A stretch of 64,000 bases of DNA, from positions 45,487,732 to 45,551,731 of the forward strand of contig NC_088865.1 in the NCBI RefSeq assembly GCF_032884065.1, read 5' to 3'. The notes beneath the pieces are model-generated. The model was not told the DNA's origin. It did no database searches and saw nothing but the letters and a program-made list of their open reading frames with translations. Position 1 is the stretch's first letter. Every line of letters starts with the position of its first letter. Positions 5,548-48,401 of the stretch are shown in pieces. Origin of the DNA: Artemia franciscana (taxonomy: Eukaryota > Arthropoda > Branchiopoda > Anostraca > Artemiidae). Made by a program: the position numbers and the translations under genes.

Positions 5548-7860
5548 CCCTGCTTTTTCAAGTTGGAGTACACATCTTTTTTCAATCCCAACATTACTTT
5601 TTGACTATATCTAAGCCCAAACAGCAAGCAATAATTTTCAGAAGGCTTTGCTATATGATTTCAGAACAAGTTCTTTTCTTAATACTCCTCCTAAACCCAT
5701 TTATTCAAGTTGGAATATCCTTTTTTTTCACGTTGGAATATACATCTTTTTCACTCCCAACATTAATTTTTGACTTTATGCATACCCCAACACCAAGCAA
5801 CACTTTTCAAAAGTCTTTTATCATTTCAGAACAAGTTCTTTTCTTAATATAAGACCGTTTTTTTCCTAACCCGTTTTTTCATCTTTTTTCACTCCCAATG
5901 CTACTTTTAAATTAAGGCATACCACAGCATCAAGCAATATTGTCAATGGGCTTGATTTGTATCATTTCAGAATAAGTATTTTTTTAACATTCCTCTTAAA
6001 CCCCTTTTTTCCATTTGGACTAAAACATCTTTTTTTCACTCGCAATATTAAATTATGACCTGCCTCAACACCATGCAAAACTTTTTAAAAGGCTTTATTA
6101 TATCATTTCAGTGCAAGTTTTTTCTTTATAGTCCTCCTATACATTTGTTTTCAATTTGGAGTGCACATCCTTTTTTCACTCCCAATATTAAATGACGATC
6201 TTATGCATACCTCAACACCATGCATTACCTTTCAAAAGGGTTTATTGTATCATCTGAAAACAAGTTCTATTCCAAATATTCCTCCTAAACTCGTTTTTCC
6301 AAGTTGGAGTACACATCTTTTTTCACTCCTAATATTACACTTCGACTTTATACATTCCCCAAAGCCAAACAATACTTTTCAATTGTGTTTCATATGTCAT
6401 TTCAGAACAAGTTCTTTTCCTAACATCCCTCCTAATTTTTTTTTTTCAAATTTGAGTATAAATTCTTTATATACATCCGGCATTTATTTTTTTATTTTCT
6501 GCATACTCAAACACTAATTACAACTTTTCAATAGTTTTTAATATATAATTTCAGAACAATTTCTCTTCTTAATATTCCTCCTAAATCCGTTTTTTCAGGT
6601 CTGAGTACATATTTAGTTTTATCACCCTCAGCCTTACTTTTTGACTTTATACACACCCAAAAACCAAGCAATACTTTTCCAAGAGCTTTATTGTATCCTT
6701 TCAGAGCATTACATTACAACATTATGCATACCTCAATACCATGCAACACTTTCCAAAAAGGTTTATTTGTATCATTTTGGAACAATTACTTTTCTTAAAA
6801 TTCCTCCTAAGCCCGTTTTTGCAAGGTGGAGTACACATCTTTTTCACTCCCAACATTACTTTTCAACTTTATGCATACATCATATATCTTTATGCATTCA
6901 TCAATACCATGCACTACTTTTCAAAAGGCTTTGTTATATCATTTCAGAAAAAGTTATTGTCTTAATACTCCTCCTAAACGTGTTTTTTTTTCGATTTGGA
7001 GTGCACATCCTTTTTGCACACAAATTACAACCTCATGCATACCCAAACACCATGAATTACTTTTCAAACAGGGTTGTTGTATCCTCTCAGAACCGGTTCT
7101 ACTCTTATTATTCATCCCCAACCCGTTTTTGTAAGTTAGAGCACACATCTTTTTTTGCTCCTATCAATACACTTCGACTTTATACATGCCCTAAAGCTAA
7201 GCAATACTTTTCAATGTTTTTTTTTTTTTTAATTTATTTCAGAACAAGTTTGTTTCTTAATGTTCCACCTAAACATTTTTTTTTTCAATTTGGAGTGCAC
7301 ATCCTTTTTTCTCCCATAATTAAATTATGACCGTATGCATACCCAACACCATGCAATACTTTTCAAAAGGGTTTATTGTATCATCCCAGAAAAAGTTCTA
7401 TTCCTAATATTCCTCCTAAGCTCATTTTTCAAGTTGAAGTACACATCTTTTCACTCCTAAAGTTATTTTTCGACTTCATGCATAACAACACTAAACAATA
7501 CTTTTCTAATGGCTTTATTGTGTCATTCCACTTTTTTTATTCCCAACATTACTTTTCGACTTTCTGCATACTCTGACACCAAGCAATATTTTTCATTTCA
7601 ACACTTTCTCTTCTTAATTTTCCTCCTAAGCCCATTTAAAAAGTTGGAGCACACATCTGTTTTCACTTGTAAAATTATTTTTCGACTTTTTCCATAACAA
7701 AACCTACCAATACTTTTCAAATGGCTTTATTGTGTCATTCCAAATCATTTCTTTTCTTAATATTCCTTCTAAACCTGTTGTTGAAGTTGTAACACACAAT
7801 TTTCTAACTCCCAACATTACAATTCAATTTTATACCTACCTCAACACCAAGCAGAAGAGA
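5548..7860 (+). repeat. ~150-bp satellite, forward block continuing into the palindrome arm
   Basis: Same satellite as at 1,001-3,190, with about 15 degenerate monomers. From 7,101 onward the monomers lie inside the left arm of the large inverted duplication and have a mirror copy at 21,905-22,664. Longer ORFs here (up to 229 codons at 6,641-7,330) run through several monomers and repeat the same peptide with variation (for example 'FLNIPPKxVF'). They are satellite readthrough, not genes. Confidence 0.85.
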
Positions 7861-8405
7861 GAAAGGTGAAGAGAAAGGTTTATTTAAAACAACTATCTTA
7901 GTTCAAATGGCTAACTTGATGTTCAAATACAAAACCATTATTATGCATATAACGACATAAAAAAGGGACAAAATACTTGTGGTAGCTGTTTGTCAGAGCA
8001 CGCTCAGGCAAGAATTTTAGCTAAGTTCTCGTACGGCTGACCGTCATTGCTTCTGGGGGTAAAATGTCACGGTGAGTAGAGTTAGACAGCAGTATTTTGT
8101 CAAACCTCAGGATAAGCTCATTCAAGCGTAGTTCCAAACTTTGAAGTTCAATGGTTGCTAGGGCATCGTGGTAGGAAATGTCTATTACTCAGGATGATCC
8201 TGGTTGTCTTCTTTTGGACTAACTCCAGTTCCTACATTAGATAGGCGGCTTTTAATACTGACGGGCCCCAAACAGGACAGGCGCATTTAAGTATGGGGTA
8301 AACGTATCACGGGAATTTCCGAAGAAGACTGTTGGCGTTTCACCCGAAGCGATGAATTTTGTAAGGTTTTGCAGAGATGCGTTAGCTTTACAGATCACAC
8401 TATTA
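7861..8405 (-). mobile_element. LINE 3' end, left-arm copy
   Basis: Mirror of the plus-strand copy at 21,355-21,900. On the minus strand it encodes the C-terminal part of a non-LTR retrotransposon reverse transcriptase, truncated at the 5' side and broken by a frameshift. The element ends in AAATAAACCTTTCTCTTCACC, a 3' UTR-like tail. It is inserted in satellite, since monomers lie on both sides. Confidence 0.65.
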
Positions 8406-8800
8406 ATATAGGTAGTAAGCAATATTTTTCATGAGGCTCTATTATATTATTTCAGGACAATTTTTTTGTCAGTATTCTTCTTAACCCCGTTTTATTTCAA
8501 GCTGGAGCACACATCTTTTTCACTCCCAACAATACTTTTCGACTAAATGCATATCCCAACGCCAAGCTATACTGTTCTTAAGGCTTTATTGTATCATTTC
8601 AGATCAAGTTGTTTTCTTAATATCCTCGTAAACTGTTTTTTTCTCAAGTTGGAGTTAACGTCTTTTCTTATTCCTTACGTTATATTTTGACTTTCTGCAT
8701 ACTCCAATACCAAGCAATACTTTTTAAATGGCTTTATTGTATCATTTCAGAATAACTTCTTTTCTGAATATTCCTCCTAAACAAATCTTTAAGTTGGAGT
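8406..8800 (+). repeat. ~150-bp satellite remnant beyond the LINE insertion, left arm
   Basis: Two to three monomers (TTTCAGATCAAGTTGTTTTC, CACTCCCAACAATACTTTT) continue the array on the far side of the LINE fragment. The mirror copy is at about 20,965-21,355. Beyond 8,800 the satellite ends and single-copy-looking AT-rich DNA begins. Confidence 0.75.
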
Positions 8801-9340
8801 TATTGGTTAAATATAGAGTTAACACGGGGTTAAAGCAATTTTCTCTTGCTACTCTTTTCTTTTCTGTGGTTAATTTAAAAACTTGCTCCACAAAGTAGGT
8901 CTTTCAGAGAAACCCAAAGGGCACCATTAAGCCATTAATGAGCAGAAATATATATATTAAATTTTCAAGCGTAAAACTGTCTCAATCACCATCAATAAAT
9001 AAATTGAACTCCAAACGGGCCAGAAGTTCAAAAAAATATCCGAGTATAAGTCAAAACAAGCAGAAATTAACACAAGCAGAGCTGACGACCCCTGTTCCAT
9101 TTTAAGATCCGAATATAATTTGCATTTTCTGAAAAAAAACAATTGAATGTACATTAATAGTTTGACATGCCTATTCTGATATTTTACTCCTTCAAGTTTA
9201 ATAGTTTTTTTGGTTTCTTGAAGTTAAAAAAATTGAAAATATTTGAAATGTATTTTGTATTCAGTAAAGTGAAAATTATGTTCCGGTCTGAAGAATTAAT
9301 GGAGGTGGTCAGCCCTAATCAAGTCAATTTCTGCTTTTTT
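8801..9340. other. Unannotated AT-rich segment, left arm
   Basis: No gene is supported. The 65-codon minus-strand ORF (8,957-9,154) has no recognisable motif and starts at a non-ATG or weak context. The mirror copy is 20,420-20,960. Confidence 0.5.
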
Positions 9341-9344
9341 TAGA

Positions 9345-9705
9345 TATTTTCTGGAGTAGTAGCAGTGTTTTGTTAGCAGTAGTAGTAACAGTTTTAGCAG
9401 CAGTATTTATAGCAATAGTAACAGATATATGGTGCCTTTTCTTTCAGTAGATCCTCCTCCTCATGATCCCTGGAAGTTTCATCTTATATTGTAAGCCGTT
9501 TCAAAATATTTCTGATATGCCTGTATCAGCAACCTGCATACATATTGCTTGTATTGAGTTATTTCAGTTTTTCCTTAAGCGCTTCCTTTGGTCTGTTCCA
9601 ATATCTTCAGCCATGGTAGTAATCACTACAGGAGTTCTAGTAGTAGTAATATTGCTAGTACTAATGGAAGTAGTTGCAGAAATGCTTTTGCTTATGTAGG
9701 CTGAC
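9345..9705. repeat. Trinucleotide-rich dispersed repeat (family T), left arm
   Basis: Blocks of AGTAGTAGTAA-like triplets flank a core with CCTGGAAGTTTCA and TTGTAAGCC. The same core with triplet blocks occurs at 24,500-25,480 and, inverted, at 26,340-26,740. ORFs here are rich in Val/Leu/Ile because of the triplets and are not genes. The mirror copy is 20,055-20,415. Confidence 0.6.
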
Positions 9706-9793
9706 GTAGTTATCCGTTTTTAAATTTTTAACTTATCCTTTACTTATACTTTTAGCCTGAATGTATAAAAAAATATTTACCTAACTGTTCAAG

Positions 9794-10012
9794 GAAGGGA
9801 GGAGTGTATTCGATTACCAATTAGCAGACCTCTTTATTTTAGACTGAAATTAACAACTCTGAAAAATGCATTTCCAGATGCAATTGGATTGAGATACAAA
9901 CAACAAGATTATTCCTTCAATGACGTTTATACGCTCATTGAACCAGCGGGTGATGAATTTTCTCTACCACAGGATTTGAGCTCATATACATTCTACTGTA
10001 TTTATGCCAAGG
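9794..10012 (+). CDS. Exon-like segment resembling the TDP-43 N-terminal domain (left arm)
   Basis: An open segment of 73 codons lies between a possible acceptor (TGTTCAAG before 9,794) and a good donor (GGTAAGAA at 10,012/10,013). It encodes ...CIRLPI, then TLKNAFPDAIGLRYK, then YTFYCIYAKG. In animal TDP-43 (TARDBP/TBPH) the N-terminal domain reads EPIE(I/L)P, then LLST(V/L)xAQFPGxCGL(R/K)YRN, then Y(F/V)xxFPK, in the same order and with nearly the same spacing. The fold mediates TDP-43 self-association. No RRM exon is seen within several kb, so this is an isolated exon, a captured fragment or a diverged paralogue. The mirror copy differs by one replacement and one silent change. Homology is inferred by eye. 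Confidence 0.5.
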
Positions 10013-12140
10013 GTAAGAACAACCTTTTAAAGTTTCTAGTTTTCGTGAGGAATTTGTCGAATTTTATTTAGTAGTAGTAATAACGCTACTTATGTAGTGG
10101 GGGGGAATACTTTATGAAGCTGCCATTTTGGATTTAAATTTTTGCTGCAGCTTGGTGATTGTTGTACCGAAGAAATGTCAAGGTATCTGAAAACAGTTAT
10201 GTCAGTTGCTAATGTGTTAGTCGCAAAAACTAATAATACAACTTAAATAGAGGCATGGTACTTCTGAGAATTCAGGGACAAAACCTTTGCAAGTTCCAAT
10301 GGATGTGGATTCCTGTTCATAATTTTTCTTACACTCTAATCAAGAATAATAATGTAAATCTATAATAGATTGACATTTATTTTTGTGTGGATATATTTCA
10401 GGTTGTTTCACCTATTCACTGGCAGATAATATCGTATCTTCTATTTTGTTTATTGGGTTTCAATATGCCCCAAAATTATAAAGCTATTACCTTCAATATA
10501 TACCTAAAGATCTCAGGTAAAGTAACCCATATTCATAATAGTATAGTATTATAGTATCTAAGAAGTGATTTTGTAAAAAAAAATCAAATTTCTCGACAAT
10601 ATTTACATAACAAGATTTTATTATTTTTTTATTTCAAATATAGAAAATTCTTCAAATTAAAAAAAATCTATTTATTTCAAGCAACTATCTTAAGAAATCT
10701 GCTGGATTTTCGAAAGAGGGGAAAACAACCCAGGCAAGACAAGTATTCCTACTGGAGATTTTACAATCAAATTCTGCACGTCTGATACTGTAACGATCTT
10801 GAGCTTCCATCGACAAAAAGGTTAACAAGTGCTGATTCTATTTTCGAAAGGTTGTTTTAAACAGCTCATTTGAACATAAACAAAAAGATTTAGTTTCCTT
10901 TTTAAAGAGTAAATAAGGTTTTGTGACTGGGAAGTGTGTGTCTTATGCTTTTTTGTCACCAAACTACTGTTTTGTTCCAAAAAGGATCAATTTGTGTCAA
11001 TTGAAAACTTAAAGATAAAGAATCAATTTAAATGTTAAAAAACCCGCAAACTGTGCTTTCCAGTTGTTGAGGAAATAATAGGCTACTCCATGATGGTGCA
11101 TTTATTAGTAGTATAGTAAATGTATGTTCTGGACAACTCGTCGAATTAATTAAATTTATCCCCTTTTTAATCGCATTTGCTCTATTTTAAACAAAAATTT
11201 CAAGCATTTTTACAATTTTCCATTCCAACCTTCAAAACGAAAAGAGGTGCTGGTAAAACAAATTTAATCTCAGTTTTGTTCTTTTTCTTAATGTAAACAC
11301 GGGCTCTTAACCCCAATTAGATCATCCCATCAATTTTTCCCATTTTCAAATGAAGTCACACCATTTTAAATTAAAGTTTATTGTATTTTTACAATTTTGG
11401 TCAAGTTTTAAAATTCAAGTTATAGTTCAAGTTCAAGATGATCAAAATTTTAAATTTGGATCAAAAAAATTTTAAATCACAGATTTCAAGTGCTAGAATT
11501 TATAATGCAGTGAAGAATAAAGTAAAAAGTTATTTTGATGATGAAATAGAAATCAATAAAAAGGAAAGTAATAAATAAAATTTTGATCGAGATTGACAAT
11601 TCATACGAGATATAAATGGTAAAGAGAGTGTTAAAAAAGAATGGAATATTGACATCTCGAATTTATTTATAAATAAGAAAAAATATGAGAAGTTCCAGAT
11701 ATCCCAGAGTAAATGTTTAAAAAAGAAGAAGACGATAATAATCCAAGTATTCAATGAATGAGATAAAATTTCCTTACAGTTAATATTTCAATGATTTCAA
11801 ATGGAACTGATTTCATACGTCTTTTTCAATTTACTGTTAGACGTTTAAAAAATAAACTAAAGGATAAAGATAGTTACAGAGACCAACTTACAACAGGTTT
11901 AATATTTTATTATCAGAAAGATAATGAAAAACTCAACCTTTTTATTATCATAGCTACTCCTGGATTTTTAATAAAAATAGTCATATCAAACAAAGCCATT
12001 TAAATAGTAACTAGAGGAATATACAAACATTAGTCATAAAGAATACATCCAGATAAGGCGTACAGTTTGAAAGAGTTAATGAAACTGATTATCGAATGAC
12101 AAGATTACCAAATTATTTGGGAGGTGCGTATGAAGAATTT
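10013..12140. other. AT-rich region without a supported gene, left arm
   Basis: I see no recognisable coding exon. A 70-codon plus ORF at 11,791-12,003 and a 74-codon minus ORF at 11,530-11,754 are compositionally AT-driven. A possible intron acceptor at about 10,402 (ATATTTCAG) would extend the preceding exon only by a short reading ending near 10,482. The mirror copy is 17,620-19,747. Confidence 0.5.
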
Positions 12141-12147
12141 AAAACGA

Positions 12148-12290
12148 ACAAAAATTACTCCGTGTATGGAAGGGGCTATTGCTTCCTCAACGTCCCGCTC
12201 TTTACGCAAAAGTTTGACTCTTTCTTTCAATTCTACTTTATAAAACAGTAAATAACTTTAGCGTAAAGAGCGGGACGTTGAGGAAGGAAT
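12148..12290. repeat. Family B foldback element, left arm
   Basis: An inverted repeat around a short loop: AACGTCCCGCTCTTTACGC (about 12,199) pairs with GCGTAAAGAGCGGGACGTT (about 12,260). It belongs to the window-wide foldback family linked to family A, but carries a private variant (GGGACGTTGAGGAAG). One end is truncated. The mirror is at 17,468-17,612 and a third near-identical piece abuts the right edge of the palindrome at 22,680. Confidence 0.8.
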
Positions 12291-12442
12291 ATAAAATTTT
12301 CAATTTTGCTCATATTAAAAGTGTTTAGTGTTTAGTTTGCTTACGATCTTTACCCTAAGTTCCCGAGGAGCCTCAACCTAGTCAATAGAAGCAATAATTC
12401 TTTACTCCACCTTTGAAATTATTTTTGAATAAGAAAATGGTG

Positions 12443-12901
12443 TTAGAAAACAGAATTGAAATTCCTTCGACAAAACTGCCTCTTGTTGACAACTAAGAGG
12501 TTTAGATGACGAATGCCTAGCAGCCCTACCCAGACAAAACGAGAACAAAAAATATCCGAATCCTGGAACTTATTAAACAGATGTCTGTTGGACCTACCAG
12601 CCAAACGAACCTTTGACAAATAGAAATCATGGTGGAAAGATCTAATGGCCATTTTCTTAATTTTCAGAAAAATGTCAGATGGAAGGTCGTTCCTAAAAAG
12701 GTTTTCGACAAAACTTAAGTCTTTGGACAACTTAAAACGTCTGTGTTTTTGCTCTGAAGTCACGTGACTTAAAGCCCTGAGGCTTAGTTTGTTTCTTAAT
12801 TTTGATTTATTTTCAATTACAAAATGGGTATTGATTCTAGATGATTTAGGAATCACTGATTTTTGTGTGCAACCTTTTAAGAGCATTTGTTGATTTAACA
12901 A
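12443..12901 (-). CDS. Uncharacterised 152-codon ORF, left arm
   Basis: Longest uninterrupted reading frame in the arms that is not satellite or a recognisable transposon domain. It opens at TTG; the first ATG is codon 6, giving about 147 residues. The product is basic (many Lys/Arg/His), with segments such as SKLRNKLSLRALSHVTSEQK and KKMAIRSFHHDFYLSKV, and has no signal peptide or membrane helix. It lies on the Helitron strand, downstream of the helicase remnant, but does not resemble Helitron C-terminal motifs. The right-arm copy is also open; of 8 base differences, 5 change an amino acid, which does not suggest strong constraint. I do not recognise the family. Confidence 0.35.
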   Translation of the reverse strand: MLNQQMLLKGCTQKSVIPKSSRINTHFVIENKSKLRNKLSLRALSHVTSEQKHRRFKLSKDLSFVENLFRNDLPSDIFLKIKKMAIRSFHHDFYLSKVRLAGRSNRHLFNKFQDSDIFCSRFVWVGLLGIRHLNLLVVNKRQFCRRNFNSVF

Positions 12902-13120
12902 ATTTTGATTTTAGATTTTTGTTGATTTTACATTGGAGGAGACTTTAATTATGTAAATTTTTTATTTGATTTCCATGTATTCGAATTTTAATGTGAAAAA
13001 GACCAAAGAAATTATTTGATACAAGACGTGATAATTGCTATTTTGGATATTGATGTCACTATGATGCTCGTTATCCTTGTAAGTGAATATTTGCTTTATT
13101 CTGGTTTTAGAATTGAATTT

Positions 13121-15241
13121 TTAAAAACAATTGTTTGGTTTGGCTGTAGAGACATCCTTCTCTCCTTTGTTGGCAAATCTTTTCATTGACTCTATTAAAA
13201 CCTGAATATAAAGCTTATACACAGTGATAGGTATTCGAATTTTCATTCGTCCTGAAATTGAGTCTACTGGGAGCCGTCCGTTTCCAATTACCAGCAATTC
13301 ATCTGAAAATATTTCACCAGAGTCATCGTTTTGCAATCAGACACACATATTTATAGGTAATATCAATGTCTTTACGTGTGCCCATAAATTAGAATTTTTC
13401 AGGCAAGCATTCATTTCATCTGCAGGGGTTGATCTAGGTATTATAGGTAACGTTTGCCTGAAATCTTCCGCAAGTAATATTAATGTGCTGCCAAGGGGTT
13501 TTGAATTTCCTCACAAATCTCGCAATGATTGCTCTAGAGCCTTGAGCGATTTTTTGTGTGCCATTGTGCACTCGTTCCAAATACTAAGTTTGCACTGCTG
13601 CAATACTTTACCCATCCCAGATGATTTGGAAATATTGCACGTGGGAGTTTCTGTAGAATGCAAATTCAGCGGCAATTTCAAAGCGGAATGAGCAGTTCTT
13701 CCACCAGGCAGCAACGTTGCGGCTATTCAGGACGAAGTAATTGCCAACACTATGTCATTTTTTGATCGAATTCATGCCAGAATCAGTTTTATCACAAACG
13801 TTTTACCAGTACCACCTGGTGCATCCAAAAAGAAGATTTCTCCAACGTTGTTATCGACACAATGGATTATCGTATCATAAACATCTTTTTGCTCAGACGT
13901 TAACTTAGAAATATTATTTTTTACATACCACAATAGATCACTCGTGTTATAACTTTGTTCACGATCCAATTCTACACATGTCGAAACAGCAGCGGTACGA
14001 TTAGGTGAGGGCATTCCCAACTCCTGAAGAGGTTTGTTTGCGATACATATGCACAAATCTTCAATAATAACTAAAGTGTATTTATAAATTTCGGATGTAA
14101 AATCAAAAGTCATATCTGACGTCTCTAACCATTTTCGATGGAGTATATCCTCGGCCATTTTCGATTTATATTTCTCCCATAACTCTGTAGGAGCTGAAGG
14201 AGAGCAAGTTGTTGGTATGATTCCAAACAATGCACGAATTTGACTTGGAGTTGACGTTTCGCACGGGTCATTGATGCAGTTATCCCAGTGTTGTTCATTC
14301 TCCAATAAATTCAGAGCTTGGCATGCACTACGGTAAGTGTCATGTATGGTACCGTTTACAGTTCTCAAATACTCAAAGGACGTGAGACCGGGTACATTCA
14401 CCAAAAGCAGGCGGAGAAAGAAGCATTCATGTTGATTGGGGTAAATGGTGTAGAGTCTTCCTATCGTGGTATCTTTGAAGATGGTAGGTTGGCCGTCGAC
14501 TGACTTACCCTGTTTTCAACGTTCGAATGATTTATTTTTAGCATACCACGTGTAATACGAAGGCACTTCAGTATACAGCAGTTTTTTTGCAAAAGAGTCA
14601 TTTTGGCATAACGAAAAGAAAGCAGTTAACGTTGTATCCAGTGGATTCAGGGCTCTTTGTTGCACGTTGGATTCCGAAAAATAAACACGTTGACCATTCT
14701 ATAAATGTACCGCTGGACAACAGCTGGTGAACTATAGCTGGACTTCGTTCATGTATCAGAAATGAAAGAATTCGCCAAAAAGCTTCATAACTGCTTATGT
14801 ATCTTCTAGCCTCATATTGTATGATTTCATCGATATCACTGATTTCGGACTCCAAGACAAAACCTGCCATGTCACTGCCTTTGTTGACGTATTTACATAT
14901 GTATTTGATTACCTTCACGGAGTTAAAGTATTCAACGTTTATGTGTGCATTAAATTTTTTGATAATAAAGGGGAGCATGGAACAACGCACTGGTTTTCTA
15001 CTTCGATGGTGGTACCGTTACGCTTTTTTATTATTGCTGTTTTACCACCATCTTCAGTAGATCTTCTTCTATATTGTAGGTTACCATCATTTCCAGTAAT
15101 TGTGTTGGGTACTAAAAGTCGAGGATATTCCTTTGTGCACCTTCCATTGGCCATGCATGGTGATTTTTCATTCAGCGCATCGCAAGGTCCATGTATCATA
15201 TTTTTTAACACAATACCAAATAAGCCCTTATCGACATTCAA
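13121..15241 (-). pseudogene. Helitron RepHel helicase remnant, left arm plus spacer
   Basis: Rolling-circle (Helitron) transposase remnant, read on the minus strand in several frames. In order: MIHGPC...CTKEYP...RRRSTEDGG (15,241-14,939); KYICKYVNKGSDMAGF and RRYISSYEAFWRILSF (14,990-14,598); VNVPGLTSFEYLRTVNG and a Walker A motif GGTGKTF (14,404-13,772); LLPGGRTAHSALKLP and NECTMAHKK, where the usual Walker B Asp is Asn (13,714-13,511); and a GNGRLPVD segment (13,336-13,121). Frameshifts separate the pieces. The HUH Rep nuclease and the C-terminal helicase motifs are absent, so the element is dead and truncated on both sides. The 5' side is cut by the palindrome junction. Confidence 0.9.
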
Positions 15242-15245
15242 ACCG
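14905..15245. other. Spacer of the palindrome (single-copy Helitron segment)
   Basis: The 341 bp between the arms have no inverted partner. They continue the minus-strand Helitron reading of the left arm: the peptide at 15,241-14,939 contains MIHGPC, CTKEYP and RRRSTEDGG, typical of the Helitron protein just upstream of its KYICKYVNKGSDM segment. The left edge of the duplication is therefore inside a Helitron. Both inner edges sit at the self-complementary octamer ACATATGT (14,895-14,902 and 15,248-15,255). Confidence 0.85.
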
Positions 15246-16625
15246 ATACATATGTAAATACGTCAACAAAGCCAGTGACATGGCAGTTTTTGTCTTGGAG
15301 TCCAAAATCAGTGATATCGATGAAATCATACAATATGAGGCTAGAAGATACATAAGCAGTTATGAAGCTTTTTGGCGAATTCTTTCATTTCTGATACATG
15401 AACGAACATGACACTTACCGTAGTGCATGCCAAGCTCTGAATTTATTGGAGAATGAACAACACTGGGATAACTGCATCAATGACCCGTGCAAAACGTCAA
15501 CTCCAAGTCAAATTCGTGCATTGTTTGGAATCATACCAACAAATTGCTCTCCTTCAGCTCCTACAGAGTTATGGGAGAAATATAAATCGAAAATGGCCGA
15601 AGATATACTCCATCGAAAATGGTTAGGGACCTCAGATATGACTTTTGATTTTACTTCAGAAATTTATAACTACACTTTAGTTATTATTGAAGATTTGTGC
15701 ATATGTATCGCAAACAAACCTCTTCAGGAGTTGGGAATGCCCTCACCTAATCGTACCGCTGCTGTTTCGACATGTGTAGAATTGGATCGTGAACAAAGTT
15801 ATAACACGAGTGATCTATTGTGGTATGTGCAAAATAATATTTCTAAGTTAACGTCTGAGCAAAAAGATGTTTATGATACGATAATCCATTGTGTCGATAA
15901 CAACGTTGGAGAAATCTTCTTTTTGGATGCACCAGGTGGTACTGGTAAAACGTTTGTGATAAAACTGATTCTGTCATGAATTCGATAAAAAAATGACATA
16001 GTGTTGGCAATTACTTCGTCCTGAATAGCCGCAACGTTGCTGCCTGGTGGAAGAACTGTTCATTCCGCTTTGAAATTGCCTCTGAATTTGCATTCTACAG
16101 AAACTCCCACGTGCAATATTTCCAAATCATCTGGGATGGGTAAAGTATTGCAGCAGTGCAAACTTAGTATTTGGAACGAGTGCACAATGGCACACAAAAA
16201 ATCGCTCAAGGCTCTAGAGCAATCATTGCGAGATTTGTGAGGAAATTCAAAACCCCTTGGCAGCACATTAATATTACTTGCGGGAGATTTCAGGCAAACG
16301 TTACCTATAATACCTAGATCAACCCCTGCAGATGAAATGAATGCTTGCCTGAAAAATTCTAATTTATGGGCACACGTAAAGACATTGATATTACCTATAA
16401 ATATGTGTGTCTGATTGCAAAACGATGACTCTGGTGAAATATTTTCAGATGAATTGCTGGCAATTGGAAAGGGACGGCTCCCAGTAGACTCAATTTCAGG
16501 ACGAATGAAAATTCGAATACCTATCACTGTGTATAGGCTTTATATTCAGGTTTTAATAGAGTCAATGAAAAGTCAATGAAATTTGCCAACAAAGGAGAGA
16601 AGGATGTCTCTATAGCCAAACCAAA
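15246..16625 (+). pseudogene. Helitron helicase remnant, right arm
   Basis: Inverted copy of the left-arm Helitron. It starts at YICKYVNKASDMAVF (15,254 on) and runs through RRYISSYEAFWRILSF to 15,405. It then jumps over 399 bp present on the left to HDTYRSACQALNLLEN (15,409 on), Walker A GGTGKTF (about 15,933) and LLPGGRTVHSALKLP (16,037 on). Like its partner it is frameshifted and lacks the Rep domain. The same Asn replaces the Walker B Asp, so that change predates the duplication. Confidence 0.9.
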
Positions 16626-16857
16626 CACCTGTTTTTAAAAATTCAATTCTAAAACCAAAATAAAGCAAATATTCATTTACAAGGATAACCAGCATCATAG
16701 TGACATCAATATCCAAAATAGCAATTATCACGTCTTGTATCAAATAATTTCTTTGGACTTTTTCACATTAAAATTCGAATACATGGAAATCACATAAAAA
16801 ATTTACATAATTAAAGTCTCCTCTAATGTAAAATCAACAAAAATCTAAAATCAAAAT

Positions 16858-17316
16858 TTGTTAAATCAACAAATGCTCTTAAAAGGTTGCACACAAGAAT
16901 CAGTGATTCCTAAATCATCTAGAATCAATACCCATTTTGTAATTGAAAATAAATCAAAATTAAGAAACAAATTAAGCCTCAGGGCTTTAAGTCACGTGAC
17001 TTCAGAGCAAAAACACAGACGTTTTAAGTTGTTCAAAGACTTAAGTTTTGTCGAAAACCTTTTTAGGAACGACCTTCCATCTGACATTTTTCTGAAAATT
17101 AAGAAAATGGCCATTAGATTTTTCCACCATGATTTCTATTTGTCAAAGGTTCATTTAGCTGGTAGGTCCAACAGACATCTATTTAATAAGTTCCAGGATT
17201 CGGATATTTTTTGTCCTCGTTTTGTCTGGGTAGGGCTGCTAGGCATTCGTCATCTAAACCTCTTAGTTGTCAACAAGAGGCAGTTTTGTCGAAGGAATTT
17301 CAATTCTGTTTTCTAA
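16858..17316 (+). CDS. Uncharacterised 152-codon ORF, right arm
   Basis: Mirror copy of the ORF at 12,443-12,901, fully open over the same length. Replacements relative to the left copy are Lys to Glu, two Ser to Phe, Arg to His and Ser to Pro. Three further base changes are silent. No homologous family is recognised. Persistence of the frame in both arms may just reflect the youth of the duplication. Confidence 0.35.
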   Translation: MLNQQMLLKGCTQESVIPKSSRINTHFVIENKSKLRNKLSLRALSHVTSEQKHRRFKLFKDLSFVENLFRNDLPSDIFLKIKKMAIRFFHHDFYLSKVHLAGRSNRHLFNKFQDSDIFCPRFVWVGLLGIRHLNLLVVNKRQFCRRNFNSVF

Positions 17317-17467
17317 CACCATTTTCTTATTCAAAAATAATTTCAAAGGTGGAGTAAAGAATTATTGCTTCTATTGACTAGGTTGAGGCTCCTCGGGAAC
17401 TTAGGGTAAAGATCCTAAGCAAACTAAACACTAAACACTTTTAATATGAGCAAAATTGAAAATTATA

Positions 17468-17612
17468 TATTCCTTCCTCAACGTCCCGCTCTTTACGCTA
17501 AAGTTATTTACTGTTTTATAAAGTAGAATTGAAAGAAAGAGTCAAACTTTTTCGTAAAGAGCGGGACGTTGAGGAAGCAATAGCCCCTTCCATACACGGA
17601 GTAATTTCTGTT
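17468..17612. repeat. Family B foldback element, right arm
   Basis: Mirror of 12,148-12,290, with the two arms around AACGTCCCGCTCTTTACGC and CGTAAAGAGCGGGACGTTG. One base change (TTTTTCG for TTTTGCG) distinguishes it from the left-arm copy. Confidence 0.8.
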
Positions 17613-19747
17613 CGTTTTAAATTCTTCATACGTACCTCCCACATAATTTGGTAATCTTGTCATTCGATAATCAGTTTCATCAACTCTTTCAAACTGTACG
17701 CCTTATCTGGATGTATTTTTTATGACTAATGTTTGTATATTCCTCTAGTTACTATTTAAATGGCTTTGTTTGATATGACTATTTTTATTAAAAATCCAGG
17801 AGTAGCTATGATAATAAAAAGGTTGAGTTTTTCATTATCTTTCTGATAATAAAATATTAAACCTGTTGTAAGTTGAACTCTGTAACTATCTCTATCCTTT
17901 AGTTTATTTTTTAAACGTCTAACAGTAAATTGAAAAAGACGTATGAAATCAGTTCCATTTGAAATCATTGAAATATTAACTGTAAGGAAATTTTATCTCA
18001 TTCATTGAATACTTGGATTATTATCGTCTTCTTCTTTTTTAAACATTTACTCTGGGATATCTGGAACTTCTCATATTTTTTCTCATTTATAAATAAATTC
18101 GAAATGTCAATATTCCATTCTTTTTTAACACTCTCTCTACCATTTATATCTCGTATGAATTGTCAATCTCGATCAAAATTTTATTTATTACTTTCCTTTT
18201 TATTGATTTCTATTTCATCATAAAAATAACTTTTTACTTTATTCTTCACTGCGTTATAAATTCTAGCACTTGAAATATGTGATTAAAAATTTTTTTTTAT
18301 CCAAATTTAAAATTTTGATGAACGTGAACTTGAACTATAACTTGAATTTTAAAACTTGACCAAAATTGTAAAAATACAAGAAACTTTAATTTAAAATGGT
18401 GTGACTTCATTTGAAAATGGGAAAAATTGATGGGATGATCTAATTGGGGTTAAGAGCCCGTGTTTACATTAAGAAAAAGAACAAAACTGAGATTAAATTT
18501 GTTTTACCAGCACCTCTTTTCGTTTTGAAGGTTGGAATGGAAAATTGTAAAAATGCTTGAAATTTTTGTTTAAAATAGAGCAAATGCGATTAAAAAGGGG
18601 ATAAATTTAATTAATTCGATGAGTTGTCCAGAACATACATTTACTATACTACTAATAAATGCACCATCATGGAGTAGCCTATTATTTCCTCAACAACTGG
18701 AAAGCACAGTTTGCGGGTTTTTTAACATTTAAATTGATTCTTTATCTTTAAGTTTTCAATTGACACAAATTGATCCTTTTTGGAACTAAACAGTAGTTTG
18801 GTGACAAAAAAAGCATAAGACACACACTTCCCAGTCACAAAACCTTATTTACTCTTTAAAAAGGAAACTAAATCTTTTTGTTTATGTTCAAATGAGCCGT
18901 TTAAAACAACCTTTCGAAAATAGAATCAACACTTGTTAACCTTTTTGTAGATGGAAGCCCAAGATCGTTACAGTATCAGACGTGCAGAATTTGATTGTAA
19001 AATTTCCAGTAGGAATACTTGTCTTGCCTGGGTTGTTTTCCCCTCTTTCGAAAATCCAGCAGATTTCTTAAGATAGTTGCTTGAAATAAATAGATTTTTT
19101 TAATTTGAAGAATTTTCTATATTTGAAATAAAAAAATAATAAAATCTTGTTATGTAAATATTGTTGAGAAATTTGATTTTTTTTTACAAAATCACTTCTT
19201 AGATACTATAATACTATACTATTATGAATATGGGTTACTTTACCTGAGATCTTTAGGTATATATTGAAGGTAATAGCTTTATAATTTTGGGGCATATTGA
19301 AAACCAATAAACAAAATAGAAGATACGACATTATCTGCCTGTGAATAGGTGAAACAGCCTGAAATATTTCCACACAAAAATAAATGTCAATCTATTATAG
19401 ATTTACATAATTATTCTTGATTAGAGTGTAAGAAAAATTATGAACAGGAATCCACATCCATTGGAATTTGCAAAGGTTTTGTCCCTGAATTCTCAGAAGT
19501 ACCTGGCCTCTATTTAAGTTGTATTATTAGTTTTTGCGACTAAAACATTAGCAACTGACATAACTGTTTTCAGATACCTTGACATTTCTTCGGCACAACA
19601 ATCACCAAGCTGCAGCAAAAATTTAAATCCAAAATGGCAGCTTCATAAAGTATTCCCCCCCACTACATAAGTAGCGTTATTACTACTACTAAATAAAATT
19701 CGACGAATTCCTCACGAAAACTAGAAACTTTAAAAGGTTGTTCTTAC
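17613..19747. other. AT-rich region without a supported gene, right arm
   Basis: Mirror of 10,013-12,140. It holds only short AT-driven ORFs (17,756-17,968 minus; 18,005-18,223 plus). No exon is recognised. Confidence 0.5.
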
Positions 19748-19966
19748 CCTTGGCATAAATACAGTAGAATGTATATGAGCTCAAATCCTGTGGTAGAGAA
19801 AATTCATCACCCGCTGGTTCAATGAGCGTATAAACGTCATTGAAGGAATAATCTTGTTGTTTGTATCTCAATCCAATTGCATCTGGAAATGCATTTTTCA
19901 GAGTTGTTAATTTCAGTCTAATATAAAGAGGTCTGCTAATTGGTAATCGAATACACTCCTCTCTTC
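19748..19966 (-). CDS. Exon-like segment resembling the TDP-43 N-terminal domain (right arm)
   Basis: Inverted copy of 9,794-10,012, still open, with the donor GGTAAGAA preserved. Within the exon the two copies differ by one silent change and one Phe/Ile replacement in the YFRLKL segment. The intron side shows further changes. The same caveats apply: no RRM exon nearby, and the assignment was made by eye from the FPDAIGLRYK core and its spacing to flanking motifs. Confidence 0.5.
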
Positions 19967-20054
19967 CTTGAACAGTTAGGTAAATATTTTTTTATACATT
20001 CAGACTAAAAGTATAAGTAAAGGATAAGTTAAAAATTTAAAAACGGATAACTAC

Positions 20055-20415
20055 GTCAGCCTACATAAGCAAAAGCATTTCTGCAACTACTTCCATTAGT
20101 ACTAGCAATATTACTACTACTAGAACTCCTGTAGTGATTACTACCATGGCTGAAGATATTGGAACAGACCAAAGGAAGCGCTGAAGGAAAAACTGAAATA
20201 ACTCAATACATGCAATATGTATGCAGGTTGCTGATACAGGCATATCAGAAATATTTTGAAACGGCTTACAATATAAGATGAAAGTTCCAGGGATCATGAG
20301 GAGGAGGATCTACTGAAAGAAAAGGCACCATATATCTGTTACTATTGCTATAAATACTGCTGCTAAAACTGTTACTACTACTGCTAACAAAACACTGCTA
20401 CTACTCCAAAAAATA
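20055..20415. repeat. Trinucleotide-rich dispersed repeat (family T), right arm
   Basis: Mirror of 9,345-9,705, with TACTACTACTGCTA-like blocks and the inverted GAAAGTTCCAGG core. No gene. Confidence 0.6.
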
Positions 20416-20419
20416 TCTA

Positions 20420-20964
20420 AAAAAAGCAGAAATTGACTTGATTAGGGCTGACCACCTCCATTAATTCTTCAGACCGGAACATAATTTTCACTTTACTGAA
20501 TACAAAATACATTTCAAATATTTTCAATTTTTTTAACTTCAAGAAATCAAAAAAACTATTAAACTTTAAGGAGTAAAATATCAGAATAGGCATGTCAAAC
20601 TATTAATGTACATTCAATTGTTTTTTTTTCAGAAAATGCAAATTATATTCGGATCTTAAAATGGAACAGGGGTCGTCAGCTCTGCTTGTGTTAATTTCTG
20701 CTTGTTTTGACTTATACTCGGATATTTTTTTGAACTTCTGGCCCGTTTGGAGTTCAATTTATTTATTGATGGTGATTGAGACAGTTTTACGCTTGAAAAT
20801 TTAATATATATATTTCTGCTCATTAATGGCTTAATGGTGCCCTTTGGGTTTCTCTGAAAGACCTACTTTGTGGAGCAAGTTTTTAAATCAACCACAGAAA
20901 AGAAAAGAGTAGCAAGAGAAAATTGCTTTAACCCCGTGTTAACTCTATATCTAACCAATAACTC
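20420..20964. other. Unannotated AT-rich segment, right arm
   Basis: Mirror of 8,801-9,340. Nothing recognisable as a gene or RNA. Confidence 0.5.
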
Positions 20965-21354
20965 CAACTTAAAAATTTGTTTAGGAGGAATATTCAGAAA
21001 AGAAGTTATTCTGAAATGATACAATAAAGCCATTTAAAAAGTGTTGCTTGGTATTAGAGTATGCAGAAAGTCAAAATGTAACGTAAGGAATAAGAAAAGA
21101 CGTTAACTCCAACTTGAGAAAAAAAAAACAGTTTACGAGGATATTAAGAAAACAACTTGATCTGAAATGATACAATAAAGCCTTAAGAACAGTATAGCTT
21201 GGCGTTGGGATATGCATTTAGTCGAAAAGTATTGTTGGGAGTGAAAAAGATGTGTGCTCCAGCTTGAAATAAAACGGGGTTAAGAAGAATACTAACAAAA
21301 AAATTGCTCTGAAATAATATAATAGAGCCTCATGAAAAATATTGCTTACTACCT
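20965..21354 (-). repeat. ~150-bp satellite remnant, right arm
   Basis: Mirror of 8,406-8,800, with TTTAGGAGGAATATT and GGAGTGAAAAAGATGTGTGC landmarks. Confidence 0.75.
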
Positions 21355-21900
21355 ATATTAATAGTGTTATCTGTAAAGCTAACGCATCTCTGCAAAACCT
21401 TTCAAAATTCATCGCTTCGGGTGAAACGCTCACAGTCTTCTTCGGATATTCCTGCGGTACGTTCGCCCCATACTTAAATGCGCCTGTCCCGTTTGGGTCC
21501 CGTCAGTATTAAAAGCCGCCTATCTAATGCAGGAACTGGAGTTAGTCCAAAAGAAGACAACCAGGATCATCCTGAGTAATAGACATTTCCTACCACGATG
21601 CCCTAGCAACCATTGAACTTCAAAGTTTGGAACTACGCTTGAATGAGCTTATCCTGAGGTTTGACAAAATACTGCTGTCTAACTCTACTCACCGTGACAT
21701 TTTACCCACAGAAGCAATGACGGTCAGCCGTACGAGAACTAAGCTAAAATTCTTGCCTGAGCGTGTTCTGACAAATAGCTACCGCAAGTATTTTTTCCCT
21801 GCTTTATGTCGTTATATGCATAATAACGGTTTTGTATTTGAACATCAAATTAGCCATTTGAACTAAGATAGTTGTTTTAAATAAACCTTTCTCTTCACCT
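21355..21900 (+). mobile_element. LINE 3' end (reverse transcriptase C-terminus), right arm
   Basis: Non-LTR retrotransposon fragment. One frame reads KCACPVWVPSVLKAAYL, then LELVQKKTTRIIL (about 21,475-21,610). This is the conserved 'L-x-YACPVW...VQKRAxRIIL' region near the end of CR1/Jockey-type reverse transcriptases. A shift to another frame continues as LQSLELRLNELILRFDKILL to a stop at about 21,864, then a short 3' UTR with AAATAAACC. It is 5'-truncated and frameshifted, so inactive. A satellite monomer follows directly at 21,905. Confidence 0.7.
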
Positions 21901-21904
21901 TTCT

Positions 21905-22664
21905 CTCTTCTGCTTGGTGTTGAGGTAGGTATAAAATCGAATTGTAATGTTGGGAGTTTTAAAATTGTGTGTTCCAACTTCAACAACAGGTTTAGAAGGA
22001 ATATTAAGAAAAGAAATGATTTGGAATGACACAATAAAGCCATTTGAAAAGTATTGGTAGGTTTTGTTATGGAAAAAGTCGAAAAATAATTTTAGGAGTG
22101 AAAACAGATGTGTGCTCCAACTTTTTAAATGGGCTTAGGAGGAAAATTAAGAAGAGAAAGTGTTGAAATGAAAAATATTGCTTGGTGTCAGAGTATGCAG
22201 AAAGTCGAAAAGTAATGTTGGGAATAAAAAAAAGTGGAATGACACAATAAAGCCATTAGAAAAGTATTGTTTAGTGTTGTTATGCATGAAGTCGAAAAAT
22301 AACTTTAGGAGTGAAAAGATGTGTAGTTCAACTTGAAAAATGGGCTTAGGAGGAATATTAGGAATAGAACTTTTCCTGGGATGATACAATAAACCCTTTT
22401 GAAAAGTATTGCATGGTGTTGGGGTATGCATACGGTCATAATTTAATTATGGGAGAAAAAAGGATATGCACTCAAAATTGAAAAAAAAAAATGTTTAAGC
22501 GGAATATTAAGAAACAAACTTGTTCTGAAATAAATTAAAAAAAAAAAACATTGAAAAGTATTGCTTAGCTTTAGGGCATGTATAAAGTCGAAGTGTATTG
22601 ATAGGAGCAAAAAAAGATGTGTGCTCTAACTTACAAAAACGGGTTGGGGATGAATAATAAGAGT
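21905..22664 (-). repeat. ~150-bp satellite, outer part of right arm
   Basis: Mirror of 7,101-7,860. Satellite stops exactly at the edge of the inverted duplication; in the left arm it continues outward without a break. The ORF at 22,147-22,431 is satellite readthrough. Confidence 0.85.
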
Positions 22665-22830
22665 TTTATAAAGAGTTTTACTGTTTTATAAAGTAGAATT
22701 GAAAGAAAGAGTCAAACTTTTGCGTAAAGAGCGGGACGTTGAGGAAGCAATAGCCCCTTCCATACAGTTTTAAGTTTTAATGTCGCTCCTTACTTTCAGT
22801 TAAAAAAACCTGTTTTTTTTTTATTTAATA
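22665..22830 (+). repeat. Family B half-element at the palindrome edge
   Basis: From 22,680 to about 22,768 the sequence matches the reverse complement of the left-arm foldback (about 12,164-12,252) with no difference that I can see, including the private GGGACGTTGAGGAAG variant. It continues into TTTTAATGTCGCTCCTTACT, the family's subterminal repeat. Only one arm is present, so no foldback can form here. Confidence 0.8.
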
Positions 22831-24490
22831 ATCAGGAAAGATTAAGGTTTTCAAATTTTCCAAGATGTTATAAGAGTTTCAAAAACTATAAAACTTGGAG
22901 GATTAAAAGGGGATGAGTAAAAGTTTGCTCTCTTGTCAACCTCAGTAAGTAAATCAACACCGTAACCTTCTTTAAACGGTCGGATAATGGTTTTTAGATC
23001 AGTGCTAAGTTGGGAATCCGCTCACTTGTGAACTATTTAAAATCAACCACTAAATTCTATAAACTAAGTATAATGCTGTGGTTTTGTGTTCCTAGTCCTA
23101 GAACCTTGCTGGAACCTTTATATGTATCTGAAGCTCCATATAGCTTCTGAAGCTGTTTTATTATAAAGCTTTATCTGAAGCTTGTGTTTTCAATTAAATA
23201 AAGATTGTTATATATTTGTTGGTATTGTTTTGCTAATATTATTTTTAAGTTTTTGATTATTTGCGTGTGCAAAGATAGTTCTTGCAAAGCCTTATAAAAG
23301 CTAATCTCATTGTCCCAAGAATCCAAATATTTTTAGTAATTCCAACCTGTTAAAATAGACCAAAATATCACGTCTTCTGCTTGAGAAAATTCAAATAGTT
23401 GTATGAGCTTTCAGATGAGTTTTGTTTTTTTTTGTCGAGAAAAATGCAGAGCAGGAACCGATTGAAACTGGACAGCGAAACGATCTTTCGAGGACTGGAA
23501 AAGGTATGATTACGTTAAATTTTGGCATACCGTTTGTTCCACGCTGTTACTAGATATTACCAATTTCCTTTTCAAATACTAGAATGTTCGTTTAGTAAAA
23601 AGAAGATACCGGTACTTTAGATGATAATACTCAAGAAGTACATATAACGGTCTTAGTGTGCACACCTCATATGTTTAAAAATGACAGTTTTTCAGGACAA
23701 GAAAGGAAACTCATTACGCTACTTCTTCTGTCGGTTTTAAATAAAATGGCACAAATATGGTGGTGCTTCTCAAAATACTTTTGAAAAACATTTGCTTAGA
23801 TAATTAATACATACAAGGAATAGGTCAATTAATTGCGTATTTTACAAGGTATGTGTACAAGACATCAGTCAAACTTCTCTTCATAAAACAAATGTGCAAT
23901 TTATTCCTTTTGAATAAGAAGGAATTACGTAAGTACCTGAAATAAGCCACTTACACCACTTGGAGGTTAGTTCTAGTGTAATAACTCAGGAATCAAAAGT
24001 AAAATACATCGCTTGCCTGAAACCATTTTGCCTGGTCTTTGAATTATAACTTCTGAGACAGGTTAGGCCTGGGCAAAGCGTTTTGAATCGCAAAATGCAA
24101 AACATCACTAAACTACCAGGAACTATACAAATGGTGAACGGAATGTGTTGACTAAATTTAAAACATGATCTCGTGTCAAACCTCCTACAGAATTCAGGTT
24201 TTGCAATTTTTGTTTTAATGCGTTTTTCAATTCAAATATAATTGATTTTATTGATAGAAAAAAAAAATACGGAGAAGCCGATATCTTTTGGTTTTTTTTT
24301 TCTTCTAAAAACACCTCAAGTCTAACGCCTAATATCTCATAATGTGGAGAACATGCGTCAAAGTTTTGTTTACTAAAAACTCATAGCTTTGTTTTATTTT
24401 TTAATTTCCTTGGCCTTCACGCAATTATGCAAAGTGTCTTGAGAGACTTGTCAAATCTGCCTAAGGGTTTGAATGTAAAATTTTCAGGAA
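22831..24490. other. Region without a supported gene
   Basis: AT-rich, apparently single-copy sequence. The 63-codon minus ORF (24,123-24,314) is low-complexity. Nothing else is supported. Confidence 0.5.
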
Positions 24491-24499
24491 ATGTTGAGG

Positions 24500-25480
24500 G
24501 TAGAAGGTGAACTGAATCACAACACATCGTCTACATGCAGTTTGTCTAAAGGAAGCATGAGCAATATCTTACGACAGGTTTGTTGTGTGAAATTTAAACT
24601 TAGAGGGCTCGTTGTGGGGGATATTGAACTAACCAAAAGACAATATTTACATTCTAATACTACTGCCTCTGCTCATACTACTTCTACTACTATTGTAAGT
24701 ACTATTACTACTGCTGCTACAGATACTATTATTAATTCTACTACTGCAACTGCTACTGCTGCTAATATTATTGTTGCTACTGTACTACTGCTAGTAAAGC
24801 TAAGCCAACCACTATTGATTCTACTGCTACTACTACTATTACTAATGTTGCTACTACTGTTGCTACTGGGGAAAAATTATTAAGGCCAATAAATCTGGGA
24901 AAACTGAAACAGTATTGAACTAAATCAAAACACACTATTCGCATACAAGTTGTCAAGAGGGTGTATCAGTAATGCTTCAGGAACGGTATATGTTTTTAAG
25001 CTGAAACTTTCAGCGTGTATTAAGGGGTATATTGAAGAAAAACAAAGGTGCTATGCGCATACTACTATTAATACTACTTTTGCTACTAAGACTAATGCTA
25101 CTACGCAAGCTAAGGGTAATAAGGAGAAGCCTGTAAGGAATATTTTGGCGGATCTTGAACTAAATCAAAACGATCTATAAGCATGTATATTGTCAGCAGA
25201 CTGACAGAAAAATATCTCAAGAACAGATTACATATTCAGTTGGACGTTTTGGGTAAACTGTGGAGGATTGTTAACTATCCAAAAGAAACTATGTATATAA
25301 TATTAAGGCTACTACTGCGATAGCTGTATCTAATGACGCTAAGGGTATTAAGGTGAAACTCTTAGGGAACGTCTAGGGATTGTTTCAAATTAAACGAATG
25401 AAACTATATGCATGAAGGTTTTCAAAAGGGTATGTATGCAATATCTTGGCCAGCGCAGCGCTATTATAGATGGCAATAAC
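24500..25480 (+). repeat. Family T tandem units with (CTA)n blocks
   Basis: Units start with GAACTAAATCAAAACAC-like sequence at about 24,503, 24,917, 25,156 and 25,383 (spacing 414, 239 and 227 bp). Each is followed by CATGnAnnTTGTCnnAAGGG and then a run of TACTACTGCTAC-like triplets; the first triplet block (about 24,655-24,870) is much the longest. A 130-codon ORF at 24,491-24,883 owes its Thr/Leu-rich tail to the triplets. I do not regard it as a gene. Confidence 0.65.
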
Positions 25481-25853
25481 TTTGAAACTTCTATAGGAAT
25501 TAGTCTAAAAGGTAAAATAAAGTTCCTGGGAGTCAACATTGATTGGAAGGTAGGCAGCCCTCTTTCCAACTCTATTTTTTAAACAAAACCTTTCAATATT
25601 TTGAGCTAGCCATTTTATTCAGCATAGCTAAATGGTTTAGTAACAATGTCTCTAAGGTTCTAAGTGTGTCAACCCCCCACAGTTATGCAATTCTTCCATT
25701 ATGCTTTAAAACTAAATTTTCTTTGAAAAATTAATTTTATGGCACTGTATGTATATATTTTCCAATAAGACAGAGAAATAGAGTTTGACTCGGTTATTTA
25801 TTGTAAGTCCTGTTCGTTTTTGGTTTCAATTATTTATTGTTGGTGGTCTGTCG

Positions 25854-28145: not shown

Positions 28146-28454
28146 GGATTGCTAGGGATAGTTAGGGATAGTGGCTATGTGTCGGCTACTGGCAGCTATG
28201 TGTCGGTCTTGCAGCTTACCAGGTCTTGCAGATTTTAGACTGATTTTAGTTACAGATTTCCAGTCTTCAGTCAATCACTGACTAAGCTCAAAGCTAGATG
28301 CTCTGGACAATTTTTGAATTGCAGCGTGATTGAGCTAAGGCTACGTTAATTTGCCCCTAAAACTAATACAGTTAAATTTTTTCTGATGTTTCTGATGGCT
28401 AGGATTCTATATGATGGTTAGGTTTCTATAACAATTCGATTCTATGTGCATCAC

Positions 28455-31930: not shown

Positions 31931-31933
31931 GAT

Positions 31934-32345: not shown

Positions 32346-32369
32346 AAAGATTAATTTTTTTTCCCACAT

Positions 32370-32925: not shown

Positions 32926-32992
<67 letters not shown>

Positions 32993-42035: not shown

Positions 42036-42077
42036 TCAGTAAAAAAAGCATTACTCTAATTTTGAATAATAAATTAC

Positions 42078-48240: not shown

Positions 48241-48401
48241 AGTGACGTACGACCCGCTGGGTAGAAATGTTAGAATCAAGTATCAAAATTCGTTATACTT
48301 TTCGGCAAAGGTGATTTACCTTATAACTTCAAGGATTTACCTTACAACTACAAAAATTCTATGTTTTAGAAAACAGTAATAAAATAAGCTTGAAAGAGAA
48401 C

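What the first reader, a model, noticed from the sequence alone, without database searches (positions are those of the whole stretch)
7101..22664. A 15.6-kb palindrome with arms over 7.4 kb
Reading both strands shows 7,101-14,904 is the reverse complement of 15,246-22,664 with only a 341-bp spacer. Over 12,443-12,901 I counted 8 substitutions in 459 bp and no indels, so the duplication is recent on the scale of the surrounding repeats. Perfect or near-perfect palindromes of this size are unstable and are usually removed, gene-converted or sex-linked in animals.
Basis: seen in the sequence. Interest (0 to 1): 0.75.

Follow-up and report, generated by a model that had tools for sequence, protein, structure and literature searches.

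The report
Recent inverted copy beside its original
An animal genome carries a 7.4-kb stretch of DNA next to a mirror-image copy of itself, most likely made by a DNA-repair or copying accident inside a cluster of duplicated genes; it looks real and fairly recent but is of an already known kind.

Summary
The palindrome is in the sequence as described: arm A 7101-14904, arm B 15246-22664, spacer 341 bp; 136 substitutions in 7402 aligned sites, 98.2% identity. In genome searches the arms are each other's closest listed copies; other relatives are 83% or less for 7.1-12.1 kb and 91-93% further in. The inner end lies in a decayed, high-copy Helitron: 39 other scored copies run through the spacer to 15168-15238 and none continues into arm B; five copies read there differ, and the window has a 7-bp filler. 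B's outer end carries a scar of short pieces matching the arm's own repeat. Polarised differences fall on both arms: 28 on A, 22 on B. I read it as a recent inverted duplication made by fold-back or template-switch repair, inside an expanded gene family with a TDP-43_N-like exon. No sign of arm-to-arm gene conversion; sex linkage untestable here. An assembly join of two alleles is unlikely but not excluded without reads. Known kind; modest interest.

The parts
7101..14904 (+). Arm A of the palindrome
15246..22664 (-). Arm B, inverted copy of arm A (98.2% over aligned sites), lacking 399 bp
14905..15238 (-). Spacer: unduplicated Helitron coding DNA, continuous with arm A in 39 of 39 other scored genome copies up to at least 15168 (15 of 39 up to 15238); its ORF matches Helraiser residues 629-704
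15239..15245 (.). 7-bp filler at the inner junction, not present at that point in five Helitron copies read there
14346..14744 (.). About 399 bp of Helitron present in arm A and missing from arm B; spanned by the 39 other Helitron matches, so read as a deletion in B
13260..15238 (-). Decayed Helitron fragment in arm A (RepHel; PIF1 helicase pieces in separate ORFs), mirrored in arm B; its outer limit was not determined exactly
12136..12291 (+). Piece of an abundant interspersed repeat inside arm A; likely source of the 90-bp piece at the outer junction
9769..10012 (+). Exon-like ORF with a TDP-43_N-like domain (25.6 bits, below the 27.1 cut-off), ending at a GGTAAGAAC donor-like site; both arms lack the ATG seen in four paralogs
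7101..8800 (+). Parts of a 147/148-bp minisatellite plus a dispersed repeat (7856-8418); the minisatellite continues left of the arm
22665..22676 (.). 12-bp insert at the outer junction; with its flank it holds GTTTTATAAAG, also found (reverse complement) at 12236 in the arm's repeat
22677..22766 (-). 90 bp identical (90/90) to arm A 12163-12252, 89/90 to arm B; nine other copies aligned from the window match it at 53-71 of 83-90
22767..22829 (-). 63-bp end piece of the same repeat family, joined with 17 bp missing relative to the other copies
22830..25853 (+). Right flank: gene-family sequence that lies downstream of arm-type sequence, same orientation, at three of four paralogous loci examined

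Best explanation
A genuine, fairly recent local inverted duplication. A break or stalled fork inside a decayed Helitron (just past 15238) was repaired by copying back along the same locus in the opposite direction (fold-back or template switch). This left the Helitron stretch 14905-15238 as an unduplicated loop plus 7 bp of filler, and made arm B out of arm A. Copying ran about 7.8 kb to 7101, then jumped through short pieces of the arm's own repeat into a related repeat end (22767-22829) and so into the right flank. The rest of the Helitron was lost here. The arms have since diverged by 1.8% without visible gene conversion. Shown: arms, spacer continuous with arm A only, filler, outer junction pieces, no other listed copy with this inner junction, absence nearby of the next 155-164 bp of Helitron. 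Inferred: the break, the direction of copying and the order of events.
For: Arms are each other's closest listed copies (100 and 97-98%; next 83% or less for 7.1-12.1 kb). 39 of 39 other scored Helitron copies match from about 13260 to 15168-15238 in one piece, including spacer and the 399 bp missing from B; none continues into arm B. Five of five copies read at the junction continue differently; the next 155-164 bp of four of them has no match in the window, 20 kb left or 10 kb right. Outer junction: 90/90 identity to the arm's repeat against 53-71 of 83-90 for nine other window copies. Right flank lies downstream of arm-type sequence in the same orientation at three of four paralogous loci. 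Differences fall on both arms: 17 A, 13 B, 1 unresolved of 31; 11 A, 9 B of 20.
Against: No reads, depth or second individual. The inner junction shows filler, not the inverted microhomology typical of fold-back; the 10-bp palindrome TACATATGTA at the arm ends is not in the five Helitron copies at the spacer's far end. At C10 and C11, the closest listed relatives of 12290-13250 and of the right flank, that block lies in arm-B orientation relative to the flank, so which arm is original with respect to the right flank is not settled. The fourth paralogous locus (C1) shows no right flank in the 40 kb fetched. Repeat copies outside the window reach 86.7% over 150 bp, so a young subfamily could explain the 90-bp identity. 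Beyond the N gap only repeats matched the four loci among the longest hits shown.
Confidence: 0.74

Rival explanations
1. Assembly join: the two arms are the two alleles of one locus, put end to end in opposite orientation by the assembler or by a chimaeric molecule, with 1.8% being heterozygosity.
For: The divergence fits allelic diversity in some invertebrates (recalled, from no call); only the two arms, no third copy, are listed above 83% for 7101-9100; a gap lies 3.2 kb beyond arm B; [quoted passage not shown] Equal ageing of both arms fits alleles as well.
Against: Outer flanks do not look allelic: 22830-25853 has no match in the 27 kb to the left, and no other copy above 93% is listed in the assembly. 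The flank is gene-family sequence found downstream of arm-type sequence elsewhere. Both junctions carry filler or local pieces. A same-molecule fold-back read would give near-identical arms and mirror-image flanks.
Confidence: 0.18
2. Two independent insertions of a Helitron carrying captured flanking DNA, head to head.
For: Helitrons are abundant here and can carry 3' flanking DNA along (PMC4778049, passages).
Against: Both arms break inside the Helitron within 341 bp of each other; arms are 98% alike while other copies are 91-93%; no place listed for the Helitron coincides with a place listed for the outer arm sequence, and helicase peptides gave only one 16-residue match in the four paralogous loci.
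Confidence: 0.03
3. Same kind of event, but arm B is the original beside the right flank and arm A is the inverted copy.
For: At C10:2060126-2061092 and C11:36888545-36889511 the 12290-13250 block (92.8%) stands in arm-B orientation to the right flank (92.7-92.9%).
Against: Arm A is continuous with the spacer and holds the 399 bp, as the other Helitron copies do; arm A runs on into minisatellite on the left, as arm-type sequence on C7 does; arm-type sequence and right flank share orientation at C7 twice and at C179.
Confidence: 0.2

Closest known systems
Fold-back inverted duplications with unduplicated spacer (human, PMC3907307)
   Same: Inverted arms around a short spacer present once and continuous with one arm; loss of sequence beyond the break; insertions at 5 of 21 sequenced junctions there (passages)
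   Different: Spacer 341 bp, shorter than their 766-70,466 bp; arms 7.4 kb rather than large chromosome segments; filler instead of inverted microhomology; no terminal deletion of a chromosome seen
Yeast inverted duplications after a double-strand break (PMC10622511)
   Same: Primary fold-back event followed by a secondary rearrangement at repeat elements (passages), like the repeat pieces at 22665-22829
   Different: No dicentric step can be seen; the junction lacks a matching short inverted repeat
Palindromes reported in Folsomia candida and Adineta vaga (PMC5490193, PMC7953838)
   Same: Inverted duplications inside an animal genome assembly (passages)
   Different: Those are gene synteny blocks; here 7.4 kb with one damaged exon and transposons
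Sex-chromosome palindromes kept by gene conversion (as described in PMC7953838, passages)
   Same: Large inverted repeats with a small spacer
   Different: Arms here are 1.8% apart with no conversion signal

Membership tests
Fold-back inverted duplication | Inverted copies separated by a short unduplicated spacer that is continuous with one copy | tested here: met
Fold-back inverted duplication | Short inverted homology at the spacer-duplication junction | tested here: not met
   7-bp filler; five Helitron copies show no such match. PMC3907307 reports insertions instead at 5 of 21 junctions
Fold-back inverted duplication | Loss of sequence beyond the break | tested here: met
   next 155-164 bp of four Helitron copies has no match in window, 20 kb left, 10 kb right
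Gene-converted palindrome | Arms near identical or with long identical tracts | tested here: not met
   1.84% divergence, chi2 p=0.07, longest identical run 320 bp against about 267 expected
Sex-linked palindrome | Location on a sex chromosome | not testable with these tools
   contigs are unnamed; no data by sex
Helitron (sequence at the centre) | RepHel protein with PIF1-type helicase | tested here: met
   PF05970 pieces over cut-off; Helraiser 7lcc E=5.6e-23, 1.9e-12, 1.3e-13
Helitron (sequence at the centre) | 5' TC, 3' hairpin and CTRR ends | not tested
   the 5' part is missing here; the 3' end was not sought
TDP-43 N-terminal domain family (arm exon) | Pfam PF18694 over gathering score | tested here: inconclusive
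   Window exon 25.6 bits, below 27.1; its C179 paralog 30.5 bits, above

The most novel reading that the evidence does not exclude
The palindrome is one product of an ongoing process: an expanded family of genes with TDP-43_N-like exons spreading and reshuffling by repeated local inverted duplication, helped by an abundant fold-back-type repeat, so that paralogs often stand in opposite orientations.
Probability: 0.25. Interest if true: 0.5.

Novelty: new member of a known kind. Interest (0 to 1): 0.35.

Why it matters
If real, it is a fairly young inverted duplication with both junctions readable at base level: an inner junction with filler that no other listed copy has, and an outer junction with pieces matching the arm's own repeat. 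Such scars tell how large palindromes start in animal genomes, and this one suggests that an arm pair can last long enough to diverge by 1.8% without visible gene conversion.

Tried and rejected
Rfam at gathering thresholds: no match in the window. PDB search with the arm exon: one chance-level hit, E=0.87; with the 155-aa ORF 12446-12910: none up to E=1. Viral contigs with the helicase piece: no relative. Pfam scan of 96 of the 107 ORFs listed (11 left out: 3 near the centre, 8 in 1-990): PIF1 in 3, TDP-43_N in 1, L1R_F9L in 1; the last is a PIF1 helicase fragment at 24 bits, below that family's cut-off of 27. The 138 ORFs listed for 25954-64000 were not scanned as a set. Papers: none with TDP-43, N-terminal domain, transposon and Helitron together; for an expansion of this family, nothing relevant among the 8 listed of 17. 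Inner-junction microhomology: I first took the 10-bp palindrome TACATATGTA (2.0% of window positions lie within 6 bp of such a centre) as a fold-back site; the Helitron copies showed a 7-bp filler at the spacer's end instead, so I dropped it. Same-molecule fold-back read: rejected, since outer flanks differ and the arms are 1.8% apart. The organism was not identified.
Full report
OBSERVATION. The palindrome exists at the stated coordinates. Arm A 7101-14904 and arm B 15246-22664 align as reverse complements over 7402 sites with 136 substitutions (78 transitions, 58 transversions) and 11 gaps: nine of 1-3 bp in runs of one base, one of 8 bp, one of 399 bp. The 399-bp difference was missed. Five first-order Markov shuffles gave no inverted hit longer than 42 bp.

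WHAT THE ARMS HOLD. From the outside in: minisatellite of about 148 bp and a dispersed repeat; an exon-like ORF with a TDP-43_N-like domain, below Pfam's cut-off; a dispersed repeat at about 11.47-12.13 kb and a piece of an abundant repeat at 12136-12291; a block 12290-13250 with close relatives on C10 and C11; and at the centre a decayed Helitron reading outwards in both arms: PIF1 helicase pieces in order, similarity to Helraiser (7lcc) with E=5.6e-23 for a 247-aa piece, and the spacer ORF matching Helraiser residues 629-704.

GENOME CONTEXT. The genome holds 1.27 Gb in 6468 contigs; the window is C3:45487732-45551731. For 7101-9100 and 9000-12130 the two arms are the closest listed copies; the others are 83% or less, the longest on C7 (two places, opposite strands), C1 and C179. 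These searches score only the best 40 candidates, and skip very common words, so counts are lower bounds and absence is not proved. On these lists the palindrome as a whole is not a dispersed unit.

INNER JUNCTION. With 13260-15420 as query, 39 other Helitron copies (91-93%) of the 40 scored match in one piece from the start of the query (one from its fourth base) to 15168-15238: 15 of 39 reach 15238, the other 24 end at 15168-15175. They span both the spacer's greater part and the 399 bp that arm B lacks; none runs on into arm B (one search is the same answer). Five copies were read at the junction: all five continue otherwise after CGACATT, where the window has CAAACCG and then arm B. Hence A plus spacer is ordinary Helitron, B is the derived copy there, and the 399 bp was lost in B. 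The next 155-164 bp of four of these copies has no match in the window, 20 kb to the left or 10 kb to the right (the fifth copy was left out because it runs into N).

OUTER JUNCTION. Arm B ends at 22664; then 12 bp, then 90 bp identical to arm A's repeat 12163-12252 (90/90; 89/90 to B), then a 63-bp end piece of this repeat family with 17 bp missing at the joint. Nine other copies aligned from the window match those 90 bp at only 53-71 of 83-90; local BLAST matches reach 88% over 50 bp, and copies at other loci reach 86.7% over 150 bp. I read the identity as copying from the arm during the rearrangement; a young subfamily not among the copies compared remains possible. From 22829/22830 on, the flank matches C7 (two loci) and C179 and C10 and C11.

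FLANKS AND ORIENTATION. At C7:32593871-32626000 (+), C7:32784007-32752002 (-) and C179:60815-48328 (-) arm-type sequence is followed in the same orientation by right-flank sequence, 19 kb, 23 kb and 0.4 kb apart; the fourth locus, C1, shows no right flank within the 40 kb fetched, which hold 100 N. Against this, at C10 and C11, the nearest listed relatives of both 12290-13250 (92.8%) and the flank (92.7-92.9%), that block has arm-B orientation. Both arrangements thus exist in the family; I leave open which arm is original with respect to the right flank, leaning to A. Beyond the N gap the longest hits to the four loci were repeats only, so the order past the gap is not confirmed.

AGE AND CONVERSION. 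K2P distance 0.0186; counts per 250 bp are only mildly uneven (p=0.07); ten adjacent double substitutions against 2.5 expected suggest multi-base mutations. Polarised against paralogs, 17 changes fall on A, 13 on B and 1 is unresolved (of 31); against C10, 11 on A and 9 on B (of 20). Both arms have aged alike, which two alleles would also show.

REAL OR ARTEFACT. I cannot see reads. An allele-to-allele join should leave allelic outer flanks; the right flank has no match in the 27 kb to the left, and no other copy above 93% is listed in the assembly. A same-molecule chimaera would give near-identical arms and mirror-image flanks. Filler and pieces matching the arm itself suit repair. I keep 18% for an assembly join.

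GENE FAMILY. The exon ORF is open in the relatives on C7 (two), C1 and C179; the gaps that I see inside the exon in that alignment are multiples of three, and the GGTAAGAAC donor-like site is shared; four of four paralogs have ATG where both arms do not, so the copy was probably damaged before it was duplicated. That this ATG is the start codon is inference. PF18694 gives 28 matches in this genome, all over the cut-off, including the C179 relative of the arm exon (30.5 bits); the arm exon itself is not among the 28.

LITERATURE SEEN. Passages only: PMC3907307, PMC7953838, PMC7492417, PMC4778049, PMC5490193, PMC10622511, PMC1855051. Other papers were seen in search listings only.

Noticed in passing
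window 9769-10012; G000 genome-wide: TDP-43_N-like exons are numerous: 28 matches over Pfam's cut-off, many clustered (for example on C1010 and C4); paralogs of the arm exon differ by in-frame gaps.
   Followed up: partly
28450-33596: A second rearranged cluster: 28450-29591 inverted at 30767-31933 (91.9%), and 29322-29904 and 29911-30506 repeated directly at 32365-32952 and 33008-33596 (93.5%, 92.3%), a duplication-inversion-duplication pattern.
   Followed up: partly
G000 C7:32.59-32.63 Mb and 32.75-32.79 Mb; C10:1.99 and 2.06 Mb; C11:36.89 Mb: Gene-family loci stand as inverted pairs on C7 and C10; the C10 and C11 pieces fetched are 99.7% identical over 2459 bp, so very recent or an assembly duplicate.
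   Followed up: no
37773-39415 and relatives: Abundant repeat of about 1.65 kb or more, up to 95.6% identical between loci; its ends occur as inverted pairs at several loci and a piece of it lies at 22677-22829.
   Followed up: partly
15246-15260: Arm B starts at the codons aligned to Helraiser's catalytic tyrosines Y727 and Y731 (alignment; residues from PMC4778049 passages); probably coincidence.
   Followed up: no
48327-48608 (+), 42051-42389 (-): Likely host exons: NAD_binding_4 (56 bits) and a sub-threshold DBS-like spectrin match.
   Followed up: no
990-2395 and about 5547-8800: Minisatellite of 147-148 bp with units about 70-78% alike, also beside arm-type sequence on C7.
   Followed up: partly
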